Part shown: one piece after another, positions 37,492 to 51,095 of the stretch
Position numbering within the stretch: position 1 is the first letter of the stretch
Layout: every line of letters begins with the position of its first letter
From: Hymenochaete sp. R1
Lineage: Eukaryota; Basidiomycota; Agaricomycetes; Hymenochaetales; Hymenochaetaceae
Length of the DNA: 51,095 bases
Reading direction: 5' to 3'
NCBI GenBank assembly: GCA_019400425.1
Contig: JAFREE010000172.1
Location: 1 to 51,095 of the forward strand
Translations under genes and position numbers: made by a program
Notes under the pieces: model-generated
What the model was told of the DNA's origin: nothing
Database searches by the model: none
What the model saw: the letters and a program-made list of their open reading frames with translations, nothing else

Positions 37492-38088
37492 GCGCTTTCT
37501 CAGAGCAACTTGAGGGGTATATACACGTCCATATCGGCAAAGTCAAACCACATCGAATTTCTCATTCTGCTTCCTTACTTATACATCCTTCTACGATAAT
37601 TGTACTTGCTAGTATCATTCGGCCAGCTTTTTTGTAATCTATGCTAAATCGTCTTCCGCAGCCATCATTCTCTACCGTACTTATCCTTCACAAAAATTCC
37701 GGCCTTCTACACCGACGATATCAGATACTGTACCATAAATGTGTTGGATCCATTCGAATGATTGCCACTAATGCTACTACTTATATTATGTAATACTATG
37801 TTGTTTTCAGTTGTTTTTTTCGCCACCTGCCGAGTGCCACGTCTCAGAAAAATCAAAGTCCAAAACTAAATCTGCCCGAATGCAATGACGATGGTGACTC
37901 GGACAATGTACAGTGTAGCTCAGATATCTCAGAGTGTCTTTGGAGATAGTTTAGGATGGGCGACTTGCCATATTAATTTTTTATGAAAATCTGTATATAA
38001 AAGGTCGTCTTCGACCCTATCCCGTTTGCCTCGTCGTACGCGCCATTCCAAGGAAAAGCAGCCGAACGGAAGTGCCTCGGACGCATCT
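37492..38088. promoter_or_regulatory. Intergenic with TATA box
   Basis: Tandem junction. A consensus TATATAAAA lies at about 37,994-38,002, some 87-95 bp before ATG 38,089, a typical fungal distance. AT-rich 3' flank of the zinc-cluster gene to the left. Confidence 0.5.
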
Positions 38089-38821
38089 ATGCAGTGCACT
38101 GTAGTCGATTTGGAGGCCGGTGAGTTTTAGTGCGTGGGTCAAGCGCCCTTACTAATTTACTAGGAGGTAAATGCCCTACCAACCGAGATCCAGGCCACCA
38201 GCCACCGACTGGAACGCACAAGGGCGACGAACGTCCAAACTCACCCTCGTGTTCTAATCGAGACTCGGACTCTCAGATCCGGGACTCTCGCGAGCTCAAG
38301 TATTCAGACGTTATAACTTGTCTGGTTGTGAATACGTTTACTTAATTTGAATTTTGCAGCAAAAGTTAACCTCTGATCTTCTACTTTCAGCCTGCAGCTG
38401 TCTCGTCGATTGCAGGACAGTTGTTATCCTCCGCCACTCAGGACCCACCGACTCTAAAGCCGGTGATAACACGCTTAATTTCTATATTTCTATTCATCGC
38501 ATTCGATTTTTCAATGCTGGCGTTACATTATACGTTCAAAGCCAGCTCCGAGTCGAAGGAGCCATCCGAATCACTGAAAAGCAGACGTTGGGAATGGCTA
38601 CGAACAATCTTTGTAAGTCGTCAAACGGACGATCGTATCATTCAAAATTTTAATAATTTTCATAGAGCCAGGGAAATTGGAAACTGATCCTTTTCGGGTT
38701 TATATCAGAAGGGTCATTAATGATTTCTCTGATACTCTCCCTGTTCCGGACACAAGGATTAGCTGTTGGACTCCTCGCCATAACCATCTTCTTAACTGGT
38801 TTGGCCCTGTACTTTATTTAG
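38089..38821 (+). CDS. Hypothetical small membrane protein (three helices)
   Basis: Four exons (38089-38119, 38164-38309, 38391-38612, 38666-38821) encode 184 residues with introns of 44, 81 and 53 nt, all in phase. The first 60 residues are polar and rich in Asp/Arg/Ser. Three hydrophobic helices follow: PVITRLISIFLFIAFDFSML, then LILFGFISEGSLMISLILSL, and GLAVGLLAITIFLTGLALYF at the very C-terminus. No signal peptide or known motif. A TATA box upstream and tidy splicing support a real gene. The family is not recognised. Confidence 0.55.
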
Positions 38822-39520
38822 CAGAATGTCGGCACTGCTTAGACCTTCCTGTTTTTACCTAGACACCCACCTTGATGAATCCCCTTATCAAGGGCATCCC
38901 AAATTTGGTTTGCGCTCTCTTCAGCGGCTCGGAAATGAAATGAAATAAATAAAATCCACAGCCCCCAATATCGGACAAGTCTCGTTCGGCGAGAGTTTTC
39001 GGCGGGTTTGGCCTTGGATAATTCAAGGCTTTTACTCTCGGAGATCAAATTCCGGAAACCTTGAAATACTTCCAAACCGATGCGCAGAACATTGATTTCT
39101 ACAGCTTTCTTTGGCCTTAGCCTCAAATGCATGTCCTTGTACCCCCCCGGTATTGCGATGGATGAGTGGTAAGTGCACTTCAAGAAGCTATGCAGAAACT
39201 GTCGTATATAACAGGATGTTCTTTTTTTCATACACGATCTAAATTGTCTCAGAGAATACGAGACAGTTAGCAATGAGTTCTAGAGAGGATTGAGAACAAG
39301 TACCTGTGGTAGAGACGACTGAAACGTGGATTCGTGCGTGCAGCATTCGCCGAGTTGAGCGTTGCATTCGCCATTCTGCATCCCAACCCAATTCCGAGCA
39401 CATCCTTTTAGGTGTAACGTACCGATAATGAAGATATATCAATCCCTAAGTTCCAGTCAAATCCGTCATATTCCCCACCCTCCCCCCTTCAACAACACTT
39501 GGCTTCCCCCCCTTCTTAAG
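38822..39520. other. Intergenic
   Basis: A 144-codon minus-strand frame (39,273-38,839) fills much of this space. It has no domain and overlaps the 3' flank of the membrane-protein gene, so I do not call it. The C-rich stretch at about 39,475-39,515 is the likely promoter edge of the gene at 39,521. Confidence 0.35.
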
Positions 39521-42001
39521 ATGCCAAAGGATACTCCGGCGAATCGCGCAGGACAGAGGAAGCCTGTATGCAGCAATTGTCGAAAAAGGAGCGTAAAAGC
39601 AAGCTTCCTAACACTCTATCAAAATAACAGTTTGCTGAAGTCCATTTCCTAGTGTGTTATGCCATCGGATACTCCCCCTTGTGCGGAGTGCAAGAGAAGG
39701 AACAGGGAGTGTCATGGACGGGAGCCCACCCGCGCAAAGAAAGACAGACTTCTGCGGATGAAGCGCAGAAGCCAAAGTGACCGAGAGAAAACCAGTCTCT
39801 CGCGGTCGAGCCAGGTATAACTAACGCCAAACATCGCAACCAGCTACTTCGTCTGACGATATCTGTAGGATAGAAGCGAGTCAGTTTCGTCAGCGCCTGA
39901 TGTAGATATGACAGACACCGTGACGGCTTTGGAGCGAATTTCCTTGTTGCGTGAAACAAGTAATGCAAATACGAATTACACCCAAGGATTGTATCTGCCG
40001 ACGTCTGCACTGGCAATTGATTCTTCCGGGCGAAATAGCACAGTACTTGGAGCTCACCAACGGCATTCAACCAGCCACTCAAGAGTTGAGCCCTCCAGTC
40101 CAAGCCCTTCGACTTCTGAAGCACCTTTTCCGACAGGTGGAGGAAGCGGGGCATGGCAACTTGGGCTCGAGTCCATGCTTTCGCGGCAATCTGGTGACAC
40201 TATGGTCCGTTTATAGACGTCTATACTCAGTTCTTTATGTAGAGTACTTACCGTGCGGATCACCATCCGGTAAATTTCTACAAAGCCCCACCAAAACCAG
40301 GGCCAAGTAAGAACGAGGATTGAGATCTCGTCAGCTTTCCCGGATACAGGACCATTAAGCGTCGATTCTTGTTTTTCTCATTCTTACTACCAAGCTTTGC
40401 GGTAGGCCAAATGATTCGTTCGTCTATAAATCATAAAGCTTGAAGAAATTTAAGAGCCAACTCGCTGCTGGCAGCAGGGTCCCCAGGACAGAGCGAGTCG
40501 CGGTGGTCACCGTAGTAAGTGGCAATTTCACAAACTTGGCTTGCTTTGATGATCCTGACGATCGCTTATGTAACGCGAATGTATTCAAGTACTGGACCCG
40601 CAATTACTTCCGAGTTTCGACCAGCAGTATCAACACCAACAACGTCCGGGTTCTCCAGCAACGCGCACAGTCAAACACATAATTTGAGCGCACCAGCAGA
40701 TGGCAGGACGGTGTCAGGGTCTTCAGCATACAGAATTTTACCGGCTATTGTTCAGCAGCAGCCTATAGCGCAGGCCATTTCGTTGAGTTTGTTTCCAAGC
40801 GACGTTCAGGCAGCGCACCGGTCCTTTCAGACGTGAGTTATTCTAACCAAGCTGCCACGTTTCTAACTTTGGACAAGTCCCGACTCTGATGCAGAAGCGC
40901 AAATTGATTATTCTCAATGGATACAAGCTTTCGCCATGTCGATGAACCAGCAACCATACTCACACTCGGTAAGTCTATTACATATCACCGTATAAATGTG
41001 ATGCCTGATAGGATTTTCTCAGCGAAATGATCCGGCACATTCAACAGCAGGTTTTAATGCAGAGCTGGACACTCATACTGGAATCAGAAATCCTATTGAT
41101 GCTGAGGCGAGTCGCGCGCACCTTTCCGTTTCAGAGGAAGGTTTCTTTCTGTCTGGCGATGCACCTACAGCACCTACAACGTGAGCCCTCGGGTACTTTG
41201 TCGTCAAAAAAGGTTACTCAAATAAAAATACTTGTTAGAGTGTCGAGGCGTGAGACCCAGGACCGACAAGTACAATCATTGAAGTAGGTCATTAACTTAG
41301 ACCATGCCATACAGACGTAAGGCTTATTTACTCACGTGGCCTGCAGTTCTTACATTGATTCTTATCGAATCTCTGGCAATATTTTCGGTTCGCTGGTAGA
41401 AGGTCAGACGATTGACGATGGTGCCCTCCAAGCCCTTCCACGAGATGGAATCGGGGAATCGGGACTGTCGCCATTTGGAGAAACGTGGCTGGAGAATAAT
41501 TGGCTGTGAGTGAATATACGTGCTCTGAGCAATCGGTACTCATGCTCATTGAAATAATCTCCAGTTCTACATTGACGGACAACTTCGCCGATCCAGAGTC
41601 AGTCAATGCAACTAGGCATTTCATGTCCGATTTTAGTGAACCATACCCAGTAAGCTGCAGCTGCCCTATTTATTCTTCTTCCCGGTCTATAACTGTGCAT
41701 AACTCTTGAATAATCTTAGCGCAGTGCGGGGCACTCAAGAACAAGGGACTCGAGAGAGCCTCTCATTGGACACCAAAATGTCCAAGTTCTGACATCTAAT
41801 TTGGTAGTGCCAGACCTAGCCGAAGAATCCGCATCTCGATCTCCTCAAGAACACCTTCGTAACGCTGTCGCAGGGCCATCGCAGCGCAACGCGTCGGCCA
41901 TAATCAACGAAAGGCGAGTTTTCTACATAAAGGGCCTCGATTTTTTGTCGAAGACAATCTCATCGATCGATTTAGAGGTGTCGAGGCCACTCCGCAGTTA
42001 G
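39521..42001 (+). CDS. Zn2Cys6 zinc-cluster transcription factor, 12 exons, GC-AG first intron
   Basis: Exons: 39521-39598, 39653-39814, 39869-40204, 40243-40306, 40478-40514, 40590-40832, 40878-40968, 41023-41180, 41239-41283, 41347-41505, 41565-41649, 41720-42001; 579 residues, all phases add up. The cluster is C17-X2-C20-X6-C27-X8-C36-X2-C39-X6-C46. The third cysteine opens exon 2, and the correct CRKRSVKC spacing is only obtained if intron 1 uses a GC donor (GCAAGC, 39599) and AG acceptor (39652); the alternative GT donor six bases earlier would give X4. A basic linker (TRAKKDRLLRMKRRSQ) and long Ser/Pro-rich regions follow. Intron 3 is only 38 nt; intron 4 (171 nt) might hide another exon. 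No MHR domain seen. Confidence 0.7.
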
Positions 42002-42841
42002 AGTCCCACGGAACATACGCTTGGGAACTCGAGTATGATTTGTTTTGAACGGAGAAATTATACTTAGACGCTTTCCCAATACTTCATCGGCTACTTATAG
42101 TCGTCGAATAGTAGAAGCCAATTCCAATCTTGCTTTTGACCTTCAATCACTAATTTTCGTCATCTACGATGCTAATCGCTTCCCCGGTGTCGCATCTTCT
42201 TTGTTCTGAAATTCTATGTATATACAGACATCCTTTTTCTCGCCATCGAGTATCTTGTTTTTCTCCGAGGTTTAACGTCTCGATTCCAAACACACACATG
42301 GCCATTAGTAACATATACTATATAATATATTTGTATGTTTGCCATCGTAGTGTAAAATAGACGAATCGTGCCCCACGACTATGCATAATTCCAACCATTT
42401 TCTTGATAATTTCGATCAAGTCACGCTGACGCAAATGTCGTGCAGTCGTATGGTAGGACGCGTCCGGTCGCTTAGCTTCCCCCTTTTGAGTCTCAATGAG
42501 TGATAGATTTATGATCATTCATATTACAATCTACAAGTTCCTCCAAACATAACAACAGCAACGACAAGAACAAGAAGCCGAAGAAAGCATGAAAATAGAC
42601 TTCCATGTAAAATGGTTGAGAAACATGAGCATACGGTGGAAGTTTCTAACTCTATCTGCTCAGCAGAAGCGAGTATAAGAAAGGTATAATGGCGGTGAGA
42701 TACATGGGTTATTACGTGACATTAAGATCGACTGGAAAGGATTATTGGCTAAGAAATACGTTTTCTTTAACGTACGCGCTATGAGGAACTGTTGGACTAA
42801 TTGGACTAAACGACTCCAACGGCAGACTGATCGAGAATGAA
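42002..42841. other. Convergent intergenic region
   Basis: 3' flanks of the 12-exon zinc-cluster gene (plus) and the micro-exon gene (minus). AT-rich with no domain-bearing frame. Confidence 0.4.
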
Positions 42842-43858
42842 TTAGTGATTCAATGAATGATTCGTACGCGCGTGGACCCACTTTGGAGCGCAATATTTCT
42901 CTACCAACTCCGGATTTTCGTTAATAAGCTTGATATTGTCCATGTCCTCGGGCGATATCATGTGGGATCCGTAGATATCATCGTATACGTGTTCCTCGAT
43001 ATTTGAGCCGTTGTTTAAAATGAACGACTCCGAATATTGGGTCTCACTGATCGGTGTTGATGAGTTCGACTCAGATGTCCAAGAACCTTGATCGTAGTAT
43101 AAGTCTGGAGTCAATCCGAGGTCACATGGACTCTCGAAACTCGAATCAACTTGGATCATCTCGTGCAAGTCCTCGCTGTATCTACCAACGTCGTGATGGA
43201 GAGTATCGAATGAAAATTCGAAAACCCCAGGTTGGCCGGCAAGAGCATGGAAGACGTGTGGTTGGTTGCTGTCCAAAGCCTCGGAATCCACTGAAAATTG
43301 CGTAGGAGGGGCACCCACATATTCATTGAACATCGTCGATGGGTATAGTTCCGCCGTCATTCCCAGATTAACGCCTGGATCAATGTTCTGCTCTGCATGC
43401 ATCTCCGCTGGGGCACTTGATTCTACATAGTTTGGAGCGATGTGTGGTTGATAAGTTGCGATTGCAGTCGGAGACGCGAAAGTAGAATTTTCTTTCTGCG
43501 ATGCAGAGTCAGCATTCCAGATCAAAATAGATTAAGTACGAGGCGATACGAACACTTTCAGTATTGAAATCCAGCACACCCAAGCTTTCATTTGGCACTC
43601 CTTTGACCCGTGCACGGTGCTTGTCATCCCGCTTCTTCTCATCATTCCGCTTTACGCGAATAGGATCAATGAATGGGCGATACTTTAAGAAAACATTGAA
43701 CAACACCATTGCAGAACCACATTTCGACCAACTCACCTCCTCTCCAGTCTCCACGATGAACATAGAGTCGGCAAGGACTTCGGGCGAGCGCTAAAGATGC
43801 CAGATAATTAGCTAAATGGTATGGGCGAAAAACGAAGCTTGCTCACTTTAGAGCCCAT
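42842..43858 (-). CDS. Hypothetical acidic protein with 12-nt first exon
   Basis: Four minus-strand exons: 43858-43847, 43790-43737, 43682-43554, 43495-42842; 282 residues, all introns phase 0 and 54-58 nt. The first coding exon is just ATG plus three codons before GTGAGC. A basic block (IRVKRNDEKKRDDKHRARVKG) near residue 35 resembles a DNA- or RNA-binding or nuclear-targeting segment. The long last exon is acidic, aromatic and Ser-rich (WTSESNSSTPISETQ; EEHVYDDIYG), as in activation domains. No domain is recognised and no zinc cluster is present. It sits among zinc-cluster genes, so a regulatory role is a reasonable but unsupported guess. An internal ATG in exon 2 could be used instead. Confidence 0.5.
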
Positions 43859-44478
43859 TGCTTGATTGCGATAACACAACTACGGGATAGACTGGACTAG
43901 TTGCAGTAGATTTCGCCTCTTGCTAGAGCGAGGATGGCAAACGAAATCACCTAAGGAACTTTCTGTCCTTAGTATTTTAAGGCGAGTATACGAAGAGGAG
44001 ACTTCTAAAGTCGGGTACAAGACATAGCAAGAGCCAACCTCGAACGTCTCTTAACCCAAGTAAGGCTTGTGGGCAAAAAGGTGCTCGGTCGACGATGGCG
44101 AATTCATTTTGAATGGATGCACACAAGCTCGGCGAAAGTGTTGATGTATTGATATTGGATTCAACATCGGCGAAGGTCATTGGTAACACGGGTTTTATGT
44201 CGGCGAGATTTGGGTTGATGCTGAACAAGACGAAAGCCAAACGTGGTATTGAACCAGAGGAGACATACTCCCCAACTTGAAGTTGCTATCCAAATCATAT
44301 TGAAATGATCGCTGATAGGGCGAGGGAAAACATGCGCACTGCCATACAACAGAGGACTGTAGGCACGTCGAGTAAGAACTCTGCGAGTAGAAGTCGGTGT
44401 TTACTGTCGGAAGTTCCAGGCGAGTTCCAAAGACGGTCTTCGGATGAAACAGTCGCCGTCTTACACTGTTAGAAACAC

Positions 44479-44820
44479 CTCTACCCATGATTGGCCGGTA
44501 TAGATCGAAGCTTGTGCATACCATCCGACCGGGAGGAGCTCGACAGTATCCGTGTGTCTTCCGATTGGCCGATTTGAAGGTCGATTTCCGGGTCTCCGTA
44601 CATGGACGTTCGTGATAAGATTCCAAACAAGAGAAAAGACCCAGTCAGTCAAAGTGATGAGTTGGGAAGTATTCAAGTTGTACGTAACGGTGATGGCTAG
44701 CCGCGACGGGGAGGGTAACGATAAACACGTTGTTTGCTTACCCACCTCACTCGAAACGCACTCCTTGAGCACACACTTCGACCGACCTAGGCCATTAGGA
44801 TTGGCCTTCGTCACAGCATT
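44479..44820 (-). CDS. Internal exons of an unresolved gene
   Basis: Two coding-like pieces, 44820-44742 and 44696-44479, join in phase across a GTAAGC...GGCTAG intron. They read VTKANPNGLGRSKCVLKECV, then TVTYNLNTSQLITLTDWVF and HTDTVELLPVGWYAQASIY. The left piece begins after a TTTGCTCAG acceptor and has no start; an ATG with about 20 upstream codons (near 44,883) is nearby but out of frame without further splicing. Downstream frames to about 43,977 also look partly coding (FNMIWIATSSWGVCLLWF; NPNLADIKPVLPMTFADVE) but I cannot choose among them. Family unknown; either an orphan gene or one in decay. Confidence 0.3.
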
Positions 44821-45486
44821 CTGAGCAAATCAAAGATGAACTCCTGGTCGATCGCTGAATGCAGTGGCCGAATCAACAACATTGGGTAGATGGTAGTACA
44901 TTCGGACGCTCGTCTGTATCAATTCGTGGACATTTACGACACCGTGACGCAACACTCTTGCTGCCAGTATCAAACTGGAACCTGTGCAAGCATAGGCTTA
45001 AATACACCTCTACTGGGGATCTCAGAAGGCGAATGCATCCGGTCTTCCTGGCTCTCGGACCTCATCGTGACGTTTAAACAAGACGCCCTCCTCGGACTCA
45101 CGTCGGTAGATGGTGATCGACTTACGGCCTGTAGCTTCTCGAAGCAAGTTTCGAGAGTTGGATACTGAACAGACTACTGCGGCTAAAGTCATTCGCGACG
45201 ACCATGTTGGTGCGACGGCCATCTGTAGCGAAACTTCTTTGGCTAGACCTTTGGTAGCTATTGAAGGACGCTATACATACGACCGTGGTCTTTAAGCTTC
45301 AGCTAGCCAACGTGAATCTGGATCAAGATCTCTTCTCTGTGCCAATGACAAGCAAATGAAAAGCTGTCATCACATCAAGTGAGTCCAGCAATATTAACAA
45401 CGCTTTACCGTTATTTAATACTTCATTTTGATCCGCACAATTGAAATTTTTGCAATAAAGACACCCAGAATCGCCATAAACCTTAT
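44821..45486. other. Intergenic or unresolved gene ends
   Basis: Short overlapping frames on the plus strand (44,890-45,168; 45,110-45,295) are not linkable into a gene I can defend. Confidence 0.3.
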
Positions 45487-45870
45487 ATGGATCTCGGCTC
45501 GCTGGCTTGCGCGATGAAAAATGAATCTAGTGAAATCATTTTCTCACTCGAAGAGAACTCTTTGAAAACCGTCTATGAGCGAGCGTCCAATCAATGCCCG
45601 TGTAAGTGTGTCTTATGTCTTTTAGCGCGGAACATTCACTGATTACGCTCTGATAGGTCGTATCTGGTTCGGGATACTGATATCCATGGCTACAGCAAAC
45701 ATTCTCGTTTGCCACCTGGTTACTTCCTCTTCAACATGGTGACTGGGAATATTGCCGGAAAGGGCAAGCACCTTGAGGGATCATATACAGCCTTCTTAAT
45801 ACAATCACTGGAATCTGCCAGCGTGCCTGACTGTACTCGATGCCCTTTCAGCATCGGGGGCAGCTCGTAG
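45487..45870 (+). CDS. Small orphan protein with overlapping splice donors
   Basis: Model: exons 45487-45599 and 45657-45870, 108 residues. Exon 1 starts at ATG and reads MDLGSLACAMKNESSEII and onwards to Asn-Gln-Cys-Pro. The donor region is GTGTAAGT: splicing at the first GT (45600) leads to a long hydrophilic second exon (YLVRDTDIHGYSKHSRLPPG, then KGKHLEGSYTAFLIQSL), while the second GT (45602, the stronger GTAAGT) shifts frame to a short hydrophobic end (WFGILISMATANILVCHLV). Both are open. No signal peptide or domain is recognised. Confidence 0.35.
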
Positions 45871-46391
45871 AGGTCAATAAGAAGACAATACTTCACGAGG
45901 TGAGCCTTCAGATCGGATCCTCTGAAAGCTCTTGGCCATCGACTCTGGACGGGAAGCATCTCAACACTCTACCAAAAACCTGATTTTTTTTTGCCATGGG
46001 CTTGCAAAACAAAGACAGCACTCGGCTAGACATAGTTATCGTCCCCTTCTCTCCTCCAGATAAACCAAAAAGGTGGTGTATATTATTTTCTCCTGTAGCT
46101 ACCGCTAAGCTCACATTGGACATCTCCTACAGCCTGAGCTCTCGCCGAAAATGTTGTTGGAACGTCCTCTCCCCGTTTGCGTCTGGTGTTGGCTTTCAGC
46201 CCTTTCACTTGCAAGGGCATATCCTCTCACATCGGATGAAGATGTTGTGCTTGAGTCTCGCATATAAATACGACGAACCTTTCGATTCTCAGTCCAGACA
46301 TTCTAACTCACAAGTGAAAAGGTGAGACCTGCTTACTTTATCCTTGCTTTCGGCATCCTCATGAACGATTGTCCGATACTGGATATTCAAG
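45871..46391. other. Intergenic
   Basis: No gene recognised. One 109-codon plus-strand frame (45,996-46,325) lacks domain features. Confidence 0.35.
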
Positions 46392-46628
46392 ATGAGTTCA
46401 CAAATCTACGCCATATACACCCCGGAGATAGTGAAAGCCCAAGGCGGAGTAATCAAACGGAAGACCGTATGTAAGCCTTGCCAAAATGCGCGCCAAGCTG
46501 TAAGTATTCCGACCCGAACTACATTTTTAATCGACTCTAACTAACGCCCATTTGTAATTTTAAAGTGCAATGGCAGGAGCGAGAATACCCCTTGCGAGCG
46601 GTGTTCAAAGAGAAAGATACAATGTGTC
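46392..46628 (+). CDS. Zn2Cys6 zinc cluster, downstream part unresolved
   Basis: Two exons, 46392-46499 and 46566-46628, encode 57 residues that form a perfect cluster: C27-X2-C30-X6-C37-X8-C46-X2-C49-X6-C56 (TVCKPCQNARQA, then CNGRSENTPCERCSKRKIQC). The intron (GTAAGT...TTTAAAG, 66 nt) is phase 0 and ends exactly before C37. A donor GTAAGC follows residue 57. The next possible acceptors either stop within six codons (after 46,686) or enter a Cys-rich frame (from about 46,793 to 47,004) with no regulator-like features. It is either a very small zinc-cluster protein or a regulator whose body was lost. Confidence 0.6.
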
Positions 46629-47829
46629 GTAAGCATCTACTCTTTCTGATACAAACTTGAGCTGATTTTTATATGTTTCGGTAAGAACTTTGTCCACCGA
46701 AACTAATGGCCGATATTATATCATCGGTGAAATGGATCATGTACGGGAACGTGTCGGTAACGGGAATGGGCCTGCGATATGTTTCCAGAAGGAGGTTTTA
46801 TCCTCTGTTCCGGTCGTATACATTTCGTGCTCGAGTGTTTGTAATGGAATTCTTATTTGCGTTTCACGATTGTTCGAGACTTTTTGGGAGCAGCCTCATG
46901 CCCCTTCTCCCCCCACAATATGTGCGCACCGATCTGTCTCGGTGTCCTATCAAGTCAAACGTCCGCGTCATTTCATGAGCACGATGCATGCATCTGTTTT
47001 CTGAACCAGCATACCTGTCTCATGTATGTGCCCCTGTTGTGAGGGTAATAGAAGGGTAAATGATGACATGTGTCAACGGATTCTTTCTTCGTTCTCGAGT
47101 GAGCGAGTGAGGACCTACCGAGCTCCCATAAGAATGAACCACTCGAATACTTTTACGCCAACAGAACTATTTCGACAATTCTCGATTTCACATATTTACT
47201 TCTTGTGGCACGGACTCTCACCGTGTCTGCGCATCGCCGCTTCTCCAAACTGCTCTATATCTATTACCTTCGTGAACACTCCTATTAGAAAGGACTTTGG
47301 CATGGATCTAGCACTCCTTTTGAACTTGACAGTCCGCATTTGAGGGTCGGCGCGTGCATCTGTCGGATATATTGTACAGCGTATGATTACAGGAACACCA
47401 AGACAAACGGTCATCGAAAGGCCATAATTTGTTTCTCAACGGCACACGACCCTAGTCAACCTCGGTGTCAAGAATGCAGGTGTTATTGACCCGGATATCA
47501 TTGCACCTTAGATCAATTTTGACGTTCAATACCAGTAGACGCCTGATAAATGGGTCACTCTTTCTGATGATACACACCTATGATTGGCCACGGTATGTGA
47601 ACACCCTTCTCCACTCTCTTTGCCTGCAAGCGCGGGTTGACAGGTTCGCCCCTCCATTTCTCCAATACGAGGATTAATTGTCAGTAGCGTGCTCTTTCGT
47701 GTCAAGCGTGTCACTGTCGCAGCTCATGCCGATGTATGTTGGATATGCGTGTGCCCGAGATCAATTGTTCGGGCGCTGAGCGTATTCTTCAATGATTTGT
47801 CCGGCCACAGGGAATAACACTGGAACACG
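46629..47829. other. Gap, possible 3' exon of the zinc-cluster gene
   Basis: 46,793-47,004 could be a terminal exon of the preceding gene. Nothing else recognised until the TATA box at 47,830. Confidence 0.3.
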
Positions 47830-47838
47830 TATAAAAAG
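47830..47838 (+). promoter_or_regulatory. TATA box of the repeat-peptide gene
   Basis: TATAAAAAG, 104-112 bp before ATG 47,942. A strong TATA with this spacing often marks highly inducible fungal genes. Confidence 0.6.
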
Positions 47839-47941
47839 GTCTGGATGGATGAATCGTCTTGTTTTGTTCAGTATCCATTCAAAATTTCTTCTTCGTGTTT
47901 CACTTTACACCGAAGACTTGGACAAACTTTCTCGAAGCACG

Positions 47942-48199
47942 ATGAGACTATCAGCCACCGTTGTTACTATTGTTGTCCTCCAACTGATGACGTTGGTTAT
48001 CTCTACCCCTCTTCGCACGGTCAGCACATACCTTGTTGACTTTCAGTTTACTTGAACTAAAGTCTACATTCAGGACCAAGAAGCGCACGGTTTCGTTGCT
48101 CGAGATGCAGAACCTTTGGCTGCTACCTTCAAGCGAGAAGCAGAACCGTTGGCAGATACCTTCAAGAGAGATGCTGAGCCTCTCGCAGACACCTTCTAA
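47942..48199 (+). CDS. Secreted Kex2-processed repeat-peptide precursor
   Basis: Two exons, 47942-48019 and 48074-48199 (intron GTCAGC...TTCAG, 54 nt, phase 0), encode 67 residues. Residues about 1-22 are a signal peptide (MRLSATVVTIVVLQLMTLVIS, then T-P). After a short spacer ending VAR come three units: DAEPLAATF-KR, EAEPLADTF-KR and DAEPLADTF at the stop. Lys-Arg is the Kex2 kexin site of the late Golgi; each unit begins with Asp-Ala or Glu-Ala, the X-Ala dipeptides that a Ste13-type dipeptidyl aminopeptidase removes in yeast alpha-factor. Predicted products are nonapeptides, or EPLA(A/D)TF heptapeptides after trimming. ATG 47942 is chosen because it opens the signal peptide. It converges with the pseudouridine synthase. 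No Tyr is in the core, so Tyr-ether cyclisation as in ustiloxin/phomopsin is unlikely. The receptor or modifying enzyme is unknown. Confidence 0.75.
48104..48196 (+). repeat. Three 33-nt tandem coding units (last lacks the KR codons)
   Basis: Units start at 48104, 48137 and 48170. Between units 2 and 3, the nine peptide codons differ at several synonymous positions (CCG/CCT, TTG/CTC, GAA/GAG, GCA/GCT, GAT/GAC) but at only one amino acid (Glu/Asp). Confidence 0.85.
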
Positions 48200-48473
48200 C
48201 AACTTTTCGAGTGATTTTCATCCGTGAGTCACTCTGGGTCGTGATGTTGTCATTGTTGATCGTCGTTTGCGTTCCTGAAGGCGAATCTGTGGGTGGGTAA
48301 CAAATACTAAGTTGAATCAGCTCGTGGCATGGATCCATCCATTTCTTCGCCTATGCATTATATAACTTTCACAACATCTATATGGGCCATGCGTGCCCAT
48401 AATCTGTAATATTTAGTACCTAGTTCATATACAAGGTGCTTAGTCTATTAATATAGGCAGAAATCAGAACACA

Positions 48474-51089
48474 TCACTCGCACTTGTGCTCGCCCCAAGT
48501 ATATCCCTTTGCCGCCCATTCCGGCAACGCGGTTTCGAAGGCGCCTAGACTCGCACTCGTGTATCGCAAAGCGTGTAAGAAGATATAGAGCTTCTCAGGC
48601 GATGGGTCGGGATGGAGAGGAAGGTAACATTCGGGACAGTAGAGGTTATCGGACTCCAAAAGGGGTTCATTTTGCGTTCCTGGGGGAATATTGATGGTCT
48701 CTGTTCTTAACATATTTCTTGGGCTCGGAAGCAGCTTTGAATTAGAAACGGAAATGTCCGTTCGCTGATCCATCCGTTCAGGTGTGAGCAGATCTTGAGA
48801 CTCGTCACCTACGTAGCAGGGTTCCTTCAGTTGTGTTTGCTCGATACTTTCGGTTGCGAGCGCTCTTTCCTCATCCTTCCCCTTCCCCTTCCCCTTCCCC
48901 TTCCCCTTCCCCTTCCCTCTCCGCACTCGATTCGCTTTTCGGGGCGTATTGTGCTGCTGAGCATAGGCATCTTGTATGACCTTCGGCGTGAGAGCCCCAC
49001 GAGCCCGAAACACGACGTCTCGCCACCGACTCCAGTCTTCATCCTCATCCTTAGGGAAAGCACAATCATTGATTAGTGAGGTAACTCGACGTAGATATTG
49101 TTATGAAGGCACTTTACTTTCTGATTACGCAAACGTGTTATCACACTGACAGCTTCGGCGGATAGTGATACCGGCGAACCCATACCAATGTCGCGCCCGG
49201 TTTCACGAGGAAGCAAGCTTGGCTTGGTCTCCGCTTCATCATTAGCAATGCCATGCCTCTTCATTAGAGTTGCGGATTCTTCCTTTGTCCTGAAAGCAGG
49301 ATTATTTCTCCTGACAGCCTGTTTCTGCAACTTTATCGCTTGCTTAGACGCAAGATGGACTATATTTAGTTCGTCCGTATGTCCGGTTCCGGTGCTGTAA
49401 TGATCGTTTAAGAAAGCTGATGGGGCCGCGTTAAATGATGTTGGTGCTTCATCCCCACGTCCGTTTCCCTCTGCTGTAGAGTCTTCGAATCCAGGCGGTG
49501 GCTTAGGGGCTTCACGTTCCTCGCCAGGAGTCAGGTCTATCCCGCCTTTTCCCAGTTGAGATCCCTAAGGATTTGCGTCGGCGAGAGGATGGTTTACGAT
49601 CAACGAAGAAAAGACCCCACCCATATTTTTCTTTCGGCATAGACGGAATCGTTTACAATTGGAAATCCTAGGTACTGAAGATGCACTCGAATTTGATGCG
49701 CTTTGTGACTTCAGCTAATTGATAAAACATTGGAAAGACGAAGCTTACACCTTCCAGTAAATGGGCGACCTGGTGAGGAAACGTCAAAATCGTTTCTGAA
49801 AATTTTTTAAGACTGCTGACAATGCACGACACTGGTGTCCGTGTTTGGGTCATAGTGCATAAACTTGAACACGGTTTTCGCTTCCTTAAACTCGATCAGC
49901 CTGAGTTGCGAGGGATAGGAAGCTCGGTCACCTTTCCATCAGGGTGTACAATGTTCAGTCCCATCTGACGGTCGACAGTCAAAAGCGGCTCTTCGCTAAC
50001 GATCTCTTCTCTGGGATATCATTTGGAAAATTTGATGGGCAAAAAACACGTATGAGACTCACGACGGGAATTTACCTTGCACACGTGCAACATATTCCTT
50101 ACGAATTCTTCCCGACGTAAATTCCTCAGTAAGTGTCCGCGCACAGCCAGCAGACAGCGCAATGATCATAAGTCCAGAAGTCAGACGGTCAAGTCGGTTT
50201 ACAGCTGCATAAGTAACGAGAAATTTAGTAGACTGCGTCTTCTGGCAGAACGAGACTCACTATAAACATTTGCAAACCCAAAGTCATCTTTGAGGATCTC
50301 AACAAGGGAGTTCTTGAAGTAACGACCGGCAGCATGCACGGGCTTAGAAGGTATTGTAGCGTCAGTAGACCATCAGAGTCGACCAGAGAAAACAAAACCT
50401 ACAATGCTCCCGGGCTTGTTGATGACAATGAAGTTCTGTTCATCATCTCTATACAGAATCTCGACCGGTGTAGATGTCACTGGTGGCTCGTGTCTATGTA
50501 CAATATTCCTAAATTGATGAGTTGAGGGAGGAACAGACAGTAGAGGAGTGCAAGGCAGTACTCAAGAGTGTCTCCGTTTCGGACTATAGTGCCAGGAAGG
50601 GCGACTTTGCCATTGACAGTCGTCACACCCGATTGAAGAGCATATCTCTTCCTCAAGACAAAAATCTCAATGAAAAAGATAGGCTCGACGAAGAGGATAC
50701 GGGCTCACATAATACTCCATGCTTCGATCCCGGAACTCTGTGGATATAATTTCCAGGATTTCACGATCAAACCACCGAGCTTTTGCGTTCGTCCTGTACG
50801 GATACCAGTAGGGTTTGACCTTCTTGAGGCCGGGCCGACTCTTAGGAATTGTTTGCGAAACAGAAGGTACCAGGGCAATTGAGGCTTCATTTTTAATACT
50901 TTCTACCATCTTGACAAACATAAACTGAAGACAAATTGGGGATGGAGGTGATAGTGGTTGCGGACGAAGCTCACTTGTACAGTAGTTTGGTCAATCGGGG
51001 GGGGGGGGGGAATATTAATTAAGGTAGGGGAAAGTTGGTTTCTACCAACCCGCGTGTGACACATTTCCCTCTTTTCTTGCCGCCGACAT
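48474..51089 (-). CDS. RluA-family RNA pseudouridine synthase (RIB2/PUS9 type)
   Basis: Twelve minus-strand exons: 51089-51063, 50924-50709, 50647-50562, 50508-50403, 50342-50261, 50204-50076, 50005-49932, 49884-49821, 49769-49749, 49700-49621, 49564-49118, 49049-48474; 635 residues, all in phase. An S4-like start ([18 protein letters not shown]), then [16 protein letters not shown], the catalytic [10 protein letters not shown] with Asp178, and [20 protein letters not shown]. It isomerises uridine to pseudouridine; relatives Pus8/Pus9 modify U32 of cytosolic and mitochondrial tRNAs. The fungal C-terminal tail ends [20 protein letters not shown], a possible CxxC zinc site. No deaminase domain as in yeast Rib2 is present. 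A Gly-Lys repeat, (GK)7, is encoded by hexamers near 48,890. The first 27-nt exon is the least certain part. The 21-nt exon 9 is required for the TGRSHQIR motif. Confidence 0.88.
48871..48916. repeat. (CCCCTT)n hexamer microsatellite in coding sequence
   Basis: About seven copies of CCCCTT on the plus strand encode alternating Gly-Lys in the linker of the pseudouridine synthase. Being in-frame hexamers, unit gain or loss keeps the reading frame. Confidence 0.8.
50998..51011 (+). repeat. Poly-G run
   Basis: About 13-14 consecutive G on the plus strand, inside the proposed first intron of the pseudouridine synthase (C-run on its sense strand). Such runs are prone to sequencing error. Confidence 0.8.
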
Positions 51090-51095
51090 GGCACA

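What the first reader, a model, noticed from the sequence alone, without database searches (positions are those of the whole stretch)
47942..48199. Undescribed Kex2-processed repeat peptide resembling alpha-factor organisation
Seen directly: a 67-residue spliced frame with a hydrophobic N-terminus and three tandem nonapeptides, the first two ending in Lys-Arg. Known: alpha-factor and fungal KEP precursors have signal peptide plus KR-separated repeats cleaved by Kex2. Inferred: this gene makes a secreted EPLA(A/D)TF-type peptide that could be a signalling, defence or ribosomally made natural product. I do not recall this core sequence from any described family.
Basis: partly seen in the sequence, partly recalled or inferred. 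Interest (0 to 1): 0.92.

Follow-up and report, generated by a model that had tools for sequence, protein, structure and literature searches.

The report
Fungal Kex2-processed repeat peptide gene
This looks like a real, small fungal gene for a secreted precursor that is probably cut into several copies of a tiny peptide, much as yeast makes its alpha-factor pheromone; it belongs to a known kind of fungal precursor, but its peptide family, found here only in one family of wood-decay fungi, has no known function.

Summary
Window 47942-48199 (+), spliced at 48020-48073, encodes 67 residues: hydrophobic N-terminus, short pro-region, and units DAEPLAATF-KR, EAEPLADTF-KR, DAEPLADTF-stop. 0 of 40 Markov-shuffled windows gave such a layout; 7 of 9 variable columns among the units are third codon positions (P = 0.008). 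Protein searches found four annotated relatives with the same layout and core DAEPL(S/A)DTF, in Pyrrhoderma noxium, Fomitiporia mediterranea, Sanghuangporus weigelae and S. sanghuang, all Hymenochaetaceae. One copy was found in the genome, which also has kexin-like and STE13-like genes. STE13-signature KEPs (Kex2-processed repeat proteins) are already described in Basidiomycota (PMC6339444, PMC7329392, PMC9769878), and one listed example, coded Fomme1|148261, may be the Fomitiporia member; I could not check. So: a new member, with a lineage-restricted core, of a known kind. Splicing, cleavage and function are unproven.

The parts
47830..47839 (+). TATA box, TATAAAAAGG
   Evidence: consensus match only
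47942..48019 (+). Exon 1: 26 codons, with the signal-like hydrophobic N-terminus (cleavage expected near TP, residues 22-23, by comparison with relatives)
   Evidence: highest mean Kyte-Doolittle value over 11 residues 2.79 (relatives P0001 2.87, P0003 2.68, P0004 2.45); SignalP not run
48020..48073 (+). Intron, 54 nt, GTCAGC...ATTCAG (inferred)
   Evidence: weak donor; P0002 reads through the same place to the same stop
48074..48103 (+). Pro-region DQEAHGFVAR, ending in a single Arg, not a dibasic site
48104..48136 (+). Unit 1 DAEPLAATF + KR
48137..48169 (+). Unit 2 EAEPLADTF + KR
48170..48196 (+). Unit 3 DAEPLADTF, ending exactly at the Phe that carboxypeptidase trimming would leave on units 1 and 2
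48197..48199 (+). Stop codon TAA

Best explanation
A gene found in one copy, in a fungus probably of Hymenochaetaceae, encodes a secreted KEX2-processed repeat precursor (KEP) of the STE13-signature type. The precursor enters the secretory pathway, loses its signal peptide, is cut after KR by kexin, loses the C-terminal K and R to a KEX1-type carboxypeptidase, and then loses N-terminal DA/EA, and probably EP, to a membrane-bound STE13-type dipeptidyl aminopeptidase. That would release two or three short linear peptides ending in -TF: LADTF and perhaps LAATF, or EPLADTF and perhaps EPLAATF if EP is kept. Shown: the layout, the conserved repeats in relatives, and kexin-like and STE13-like genes in the same genome. 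Inferred: splicing, secretion, each cleavage, product ends and function. On function I commit to an extracellular peptide signal, sensed by the fungus itself (about 0.4) or by its biotic partners (about 0.35); the confidence given is for the precursor and its processing, not for that role.
For: Layout. 0 of 40 Markov windows. Third-position bias, 7 of 9. Four annotated relatives with signal-like N-terminus, KR/RR-separated units and the same core: PNOK_0013200 (2.9e-15), FOMMEDRAFT_131165 (4.2e-40) and ACEPAI_8240 (3.6e-21), ACEPAF_5352 (7.3e-34); sequences. In the window protein and in P. noxium the last unit ends in Phe at the stop codon, 2 of 5 proteins. Own genome: one DPPIV_N gene (9.8e-67) with an upstream exon coding a membrane-like segment and matches to DPP4 structures; two P_proprotein matches that match furin and kexin chains. 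Precedent: peptides from Pleurotus KEPs with STE13 motifs were detected by mass spectrometry (section 8 of PMC9769878).
Against: Weak donor GTCAGC and other in-frame models. The first unit is preceded by VAR, so unit 1 may not be freed. Only three units; the protein would fail the screen of Le Marquer et al., which asks for at least four fragments. In some degenerate units of relatives, such as DVESLSITF and ELERLSGTF, A2 and P4 are lost while E3, L5 and S6 stay, which speaks for E3 being in the product and against a pure STE13 spacer (the pattern itself fixed L5 and allowed only E or Q at 3). In the window species LA is itself an XA dipeptide, so trimming might go on to DTF. KEX1 was not searched. 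Six C. cinerea KEP knockouts showed no phenotype.
Confidence: 0.8

Rival explanations
1. The KEP is the precursor of a modified, cyclised dikaritin-type natural product (RiPP), made with UstYa-family oxidases.
For: Same signal-plus-KR-repeat layout. The genome does hold UstYa matches, four of them. [quoted passage not shown]
Against: All four UstYa matches lie on C315, more than 125 kb from either end of that contig, so they are not neighbours of this gene on C82. The core has no Tyr. Le Marquer et al. say STE13 is not predicted to process ustiloxin/phomopsin precursors. In 24 of the 50 frames of 75 aa or more listed for 37500-51095 that I scanned, no Pfam domain was found; these were unspliced frames, so domains may be missed.
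Confidence: 0.06
2. The peptide is a sexual pheromone, a true alpha-factor equivalent.
For: Precursor layout and STE13 signature as in ascomycete alpha pheromones.
Against: Basidiomycete mating pheromones are prenylated a-type peptides. No STE2 match in the genome, although the 14 control genomes were silent too, so absence is not shown. STE3 matches are on C293, not C82. The core does not resemble known alpha pheromones (recalled), and no MF_alpha family matched.
Confidence: 0.05
3. Chance reading frame in a 33-bp tandem repeat, or a decayed gene; no product.
For: Weak donor site, short gene, no transcript or annotation at hand for this genome; pre-unit-1 site degenerate.
Against: Relatives in three named genera keep signal-like leader, spacing and core; third-position bias; 0 of 40 Markov windows.
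Confidence: 0.05
4. A secreted repeat protein whose function is in the wall or surface, as for U. maydis Rep1, with KR cuts incidental to the role.
For: Rep1 is a Kex2-processed repeat protein of a basidiomycete whose peptides act at the hyphal surface (passages).
Against: Rep1 peptides are 37 residues and its precursor lacks the STE13 signature; these units are 9 residues with that signature.
Confidence: 0.04

Closest known systems
Basidiomycete KEPs with STE13 signature (Le Marquer et al. 2019; Pleurotus KEP 1091723 in Vogt et al. 2022)
   Same: Signal-like N-terminus, tandem units separated by KR/RR, XA/XP dipeptides after the KR.
   Different: Core: Pleurotus peptides end in -AADW, these in -DTF. 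Only three units here, with a single Arg before the first. Fomme1|148261 may be the F. mediterranea member of this very family; not checked.
Ascomycete alpha-pheromone precursors (MF-alpha)
   Same: KR then EA/DA spacers and several copies per precursor.
   Different: No match to any MF_alpha model; no STE2 found, control silent; basidiomycete mating uses a-type pheromones.
Dikaritin precursors (ustiloxin, phomopsin)
   Same: Signal peptide plus KR-separated repeats.
   Different: No Tyr in the core, no UstYa match on the contig, and a STE13 signature, which is said not to be predicted for them.
Umemura type G-1/P-2, the most widespread KEP type
   Same: Its genera include Sanghuangporus, Pyrrhoderma and Fomitiporia.
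   Different: Described as rich in Tyr; this core has none. Its sequences were not seen.

Membership tests
KEP (Kex2-processed repeat protein) | N-terminal signal peptide | tested here: inconclusive
   Hydrophobic N-terminus, 2.79 mean Kyte-Doolittle over the best 11 residues, similar in three relatives; SignalP not available
KEP (Kex2-processed repeat protein) | At least three similar repeats bounded by Kex2 sites (Umemura: >= 3 repeats of >= 8 residues between dibasic sites) | tested here: inconclusive
   Three 9-residue repeats, two KR sites; the site before unit 1 is VAR and unit 3 ends at the stop (criterion). Relatives have more dibasic sites
KEP (Kex2-processed repeat protein) | At least four fragments after in silico KR/RR cutting (Le Marquer screen) | tested here: not met
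   Two KR sites give three fragments (criterion). This is a screening threshold of one survey rather than a defining trait; P. noxium with four KR sites meets it
STE13-signature KEP | XA or XP dipeptide right after the Kex2 site | tested here: met
   DA or EA, then EP, after KR in the window; A second in 14 and P fourth in 16 of 20 units listed by a loose pattern that restricted positions 1-6
STE13-signature KEP | Actual cleavage by KEX2, KEX1 and STE13 | not testable with these tools
   Kexin-like and STE13-like genes present; KEX1 not searched
Ascomycete alpha pheromone | Match to MF_alpha models | tested here: not met
   Pfam scan of 4 proteins at E <= 10: no MF_alpha family listed
Ascomycete alpha pheromone | Cognate STE2 receptor in the genome | tested here: inconclusive
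   No match, but controls silent
Dikaritin RiPP precursor | UstYa-family (DUF3328) gene nearby | tested here: not met
   Four matches, all on C315. C82 is 51,095 bases, so only 2.9 kb is held 3' of the gene, and matching is exon by exon
Dikaritin RiPP precursor | Tyr in the core (as in ustiloxin and phomopsin) | tested here: not met
   No Tyr in any of the three units; importance of Tyr passages

The most novel reading that the evidence does not exclude
A peptide hormone restricted to Hymenochaetaceae, the pentapeptide L(A/S)DTF or heptapeptide EPL(A/S)DTF, that acts through an as yet unknown receptor in non-mating signalling: an alpha-factor-like secreted peptide system used by basidiomycetes for something other than sex.
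Probability: 0.2. Interest if true: 0.75.

Novelty: new member of a known kind. Interest (0 to 1): 0.42.

Why it matters
Basidiomycete mating pheromones are prenylated lipopeptides, so why these fungi keep alpha-factor-like precursors is an open question raised in PMC6339444 and PMC9769878. A family found in one copy here, with a strongly conserved core in three named genera of one fungal family and only a few candidate products, is a simple test case: a handful of synthetic peptides covers the likely products.

Tried and rejected
RiPP cluster: disfavoured because the UstYa matches are all on C315 and no Pfam domain turned up in 24 of 50 listed neighbouring frames; unspliced frames, so not exhaustive. 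Mating locus: STE3 matches are on C293; linkage beyond contig ends cannot be excluded. Membership in Umemura's type G-1/P-2: unlikely, since it is described as rich in Tyr; sequences not seen. Other copies in the genome: two further pattern matches with two mismatches (C2, C159) were not followed. P0006 (E 5.9) carries PF04542 and PF08281 (sigma-factor domains, recalled) and was dropped as chance. Weak Pfam matches of relatives (L27_1, DUF1661, Lectin_N, Apolipoprotein, Mucin-like, DUF1451) were dropped; those listed are all under the curated cut-off, DUF1451 (E 0.21) was shown without one. Synteny with P. noxium was not tested: all three protein searches went to the family itself. The species of the window was not established; Hymenochaetaceae is inferred from this gene alone. 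KEX1 was not searched. No structure prediction was made.

Paper searches. One search (kex2 + hymenochaetales + peptide) found 0 papers; one search found one grapevine trunk pathogen paper that was not opened.

Full report
Observation. The frame described is there. Spliced at 48020-48073 the plus strand gives 67 residues, MRLSATVVTIVVLQLMTLVISTPLRT-DQEAHGFVAR-DAEPLAATFKR-EAEPLADTFKR-DAEPLADTF. The tandem array is the highest-scoring of 37 TRF rows in the window. A scan for three adjacent similar units with KR/RR between them found this place once in the real window and in 0 of 40 third-order Markov windows. Among the three 27-nt units 9 columns vary, 7 of them third codon positions (P = 0.008 against one third): the DNA has drifted while the peptide was kept. 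A TATA box lies at 47830.

Gene model. The repeat frame needs splicing to reach an ATG; the unspliced frame meets a stop inside the intron. The donor GTCAGC is weak. An enumeration that allowed GT or GC donors, and every ATG from 47780 on, gave 89 models that keep the repeats in frame; 18 score higher on my crude donor count, all with GC donors and AAG acceptors, which I hold less likely than GT...CAG (the best 25 rows were printed). P0002, a jgi-sourced protein from a 4,752-base contig, matches exon 1 and reads on through the intron start to the same stop; compared by eye with the unspliced window frame from the ATG at 47849 (shown) it differs at 6 of 68 residues. It is an unspliced gene call of a close copy, so it neither proves nor disproves splicing, and its own E-value is weak (0.054). 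The relatives start with M(R/Q)(L/F/V) (P0005 carries an extended start), which supports the ATG at 47942.

Family. The first protein search returned 2 proteins at E <= 10 of 12 candidates: P. noxium PNOK_0013200 (2.9e-15) and P0002. A two-sequence profile returned 4 of 905 candidates, adding F. mediterranea FOMMEDRAFT_131165 (4.2e-40) and S. weigelae ACEPAI_8240 (3.6e-21). A four-sequence profile returned 5 of 4541 candidates, adding S. sanghuang ACEPAF_5352 (7.3e-34) and one chance match (P0006, 5.9). The candidates share exact 5-residue words with the query, so remote relatives can be missed; at this sensitivity none came up outside Hymenochaetaceae (lineages). The four are named hypothetical or uncharacterised.

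Units. A loose pattern listed 20 units in five proteins. It restricted positions 1-6 (L fixed at 5, E or Q at 3, A, S or K at 6) and left 7-9 free, so counts at 1-6 are partly by construction; it misses at least two degenerate S. sanghuang units that can be seen. D is first in 17 of 20, A second in 14, P fourth in 16, D seventh in 14, T eighth in 17, F ninth in 17; 11 of 20 are exactly DAEPL(S/A)DTF. The residues just before are KR in 12, RR in 5, and AR, ER and RE once each; AR is the window's first unit. The last unit ends in F at the stop codon in the window protein and in P. noxium, as KEX1 would leave it on the others; in the other three proteins a tail with degenerate units follows.

Processing. 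KR followed by DA/EA and EP fits the STE13 signature as defined by Le Marquer et al. (XA or XP) and Vogt et al.. Against a pure spacer: degenerate units such as DVESLSITF and ELERLSGTF lose A2 or P4 but keep E3, L5 and S6 (with the caveat on the pattern). In relatives LS follows EP, which is neither XA nor XP; in the window species LA might be trimmed further. The genome has one DPPIV_N gene at 9.8e-67, with an upstream exon that codes a membrane-like segment and matches to DPP4 structures, and two P_proprotein matches that hit furin and kexin chains. KEX1 was not searched.

Context. One copy: the protein search finds only this gene's two exons and the degenerate pattern only its three units plus two two-mismatch sites that were not followed. 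UstYa matches are on C315, STE3 on C293, STE2 was not found but controls were silent. Contig C82 ends 2.9 kb past the gene. Of the 50 frames of 75 aa or more listed for 37500-51095 I scanned 24 against Pfam and found no domain; six further frames lie elsewhere in the window, and two of them gave E1-E2 ATPase and RhoGEF.

Literature. PMC9769878: outline with abstract, sections 3, 8, 10, 14 and passages. PMC6339444: sections 9, 15, 24 and passages. PMC7329392: outline with abstract, section 8 and passages. STE13-signature KEPs in Basidiomycota are established there, and Pleurotus ones were shown by MS to yield peptides. EPLSDTF and EPLADTF occur in no held main text; figures and supplements could not be searched, so an earlier listing of the F. 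mediterranea member is possible (Fomme1|148261).

Verdict. A genuine KEP gene, a new member of a known kind with a lineage-restricted, well-conserved core. Layout and family are shown; splicing, cleavage, product ends and function are inferred.

Noticed in passing
P0005 (Sanghuangporus sanghuang ACEPAF_5352): The public gene model carries about 53 residues before a signal-like start that resembles that of S. weigelae P0004; probably a wrong start.
   Followed up: partly
L011-L014 (G000 C315:130398-131773 and 166024-167396): Four UstYa (DUF3328) matches in two divergent pairs about 35 kb apart, a possible dikaritin-like locus elsewhere in this genome.
   Followed up: no
L015-L018 (G000 C293:208856-212266): STE3-type receptor matches side by side, probably two genes, likely the pheromone-receptor locus.
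   Followed up: no
window 48875-48917, within the - strand frame 48474-49100: A (CCTTCC)n run of 7.2 copies that codes a GKGKGK stretch in the neighbouring minus-strand frame, without a Pfam match.
   Followed up: no
P0002: A jgi-sourced 4,752-base contig holds a close copy of exon 1 and the intron start, called as an unspliced protein; small Kex2 repeat genes with introns are easily missed by gene callers.
   Followed up: partly
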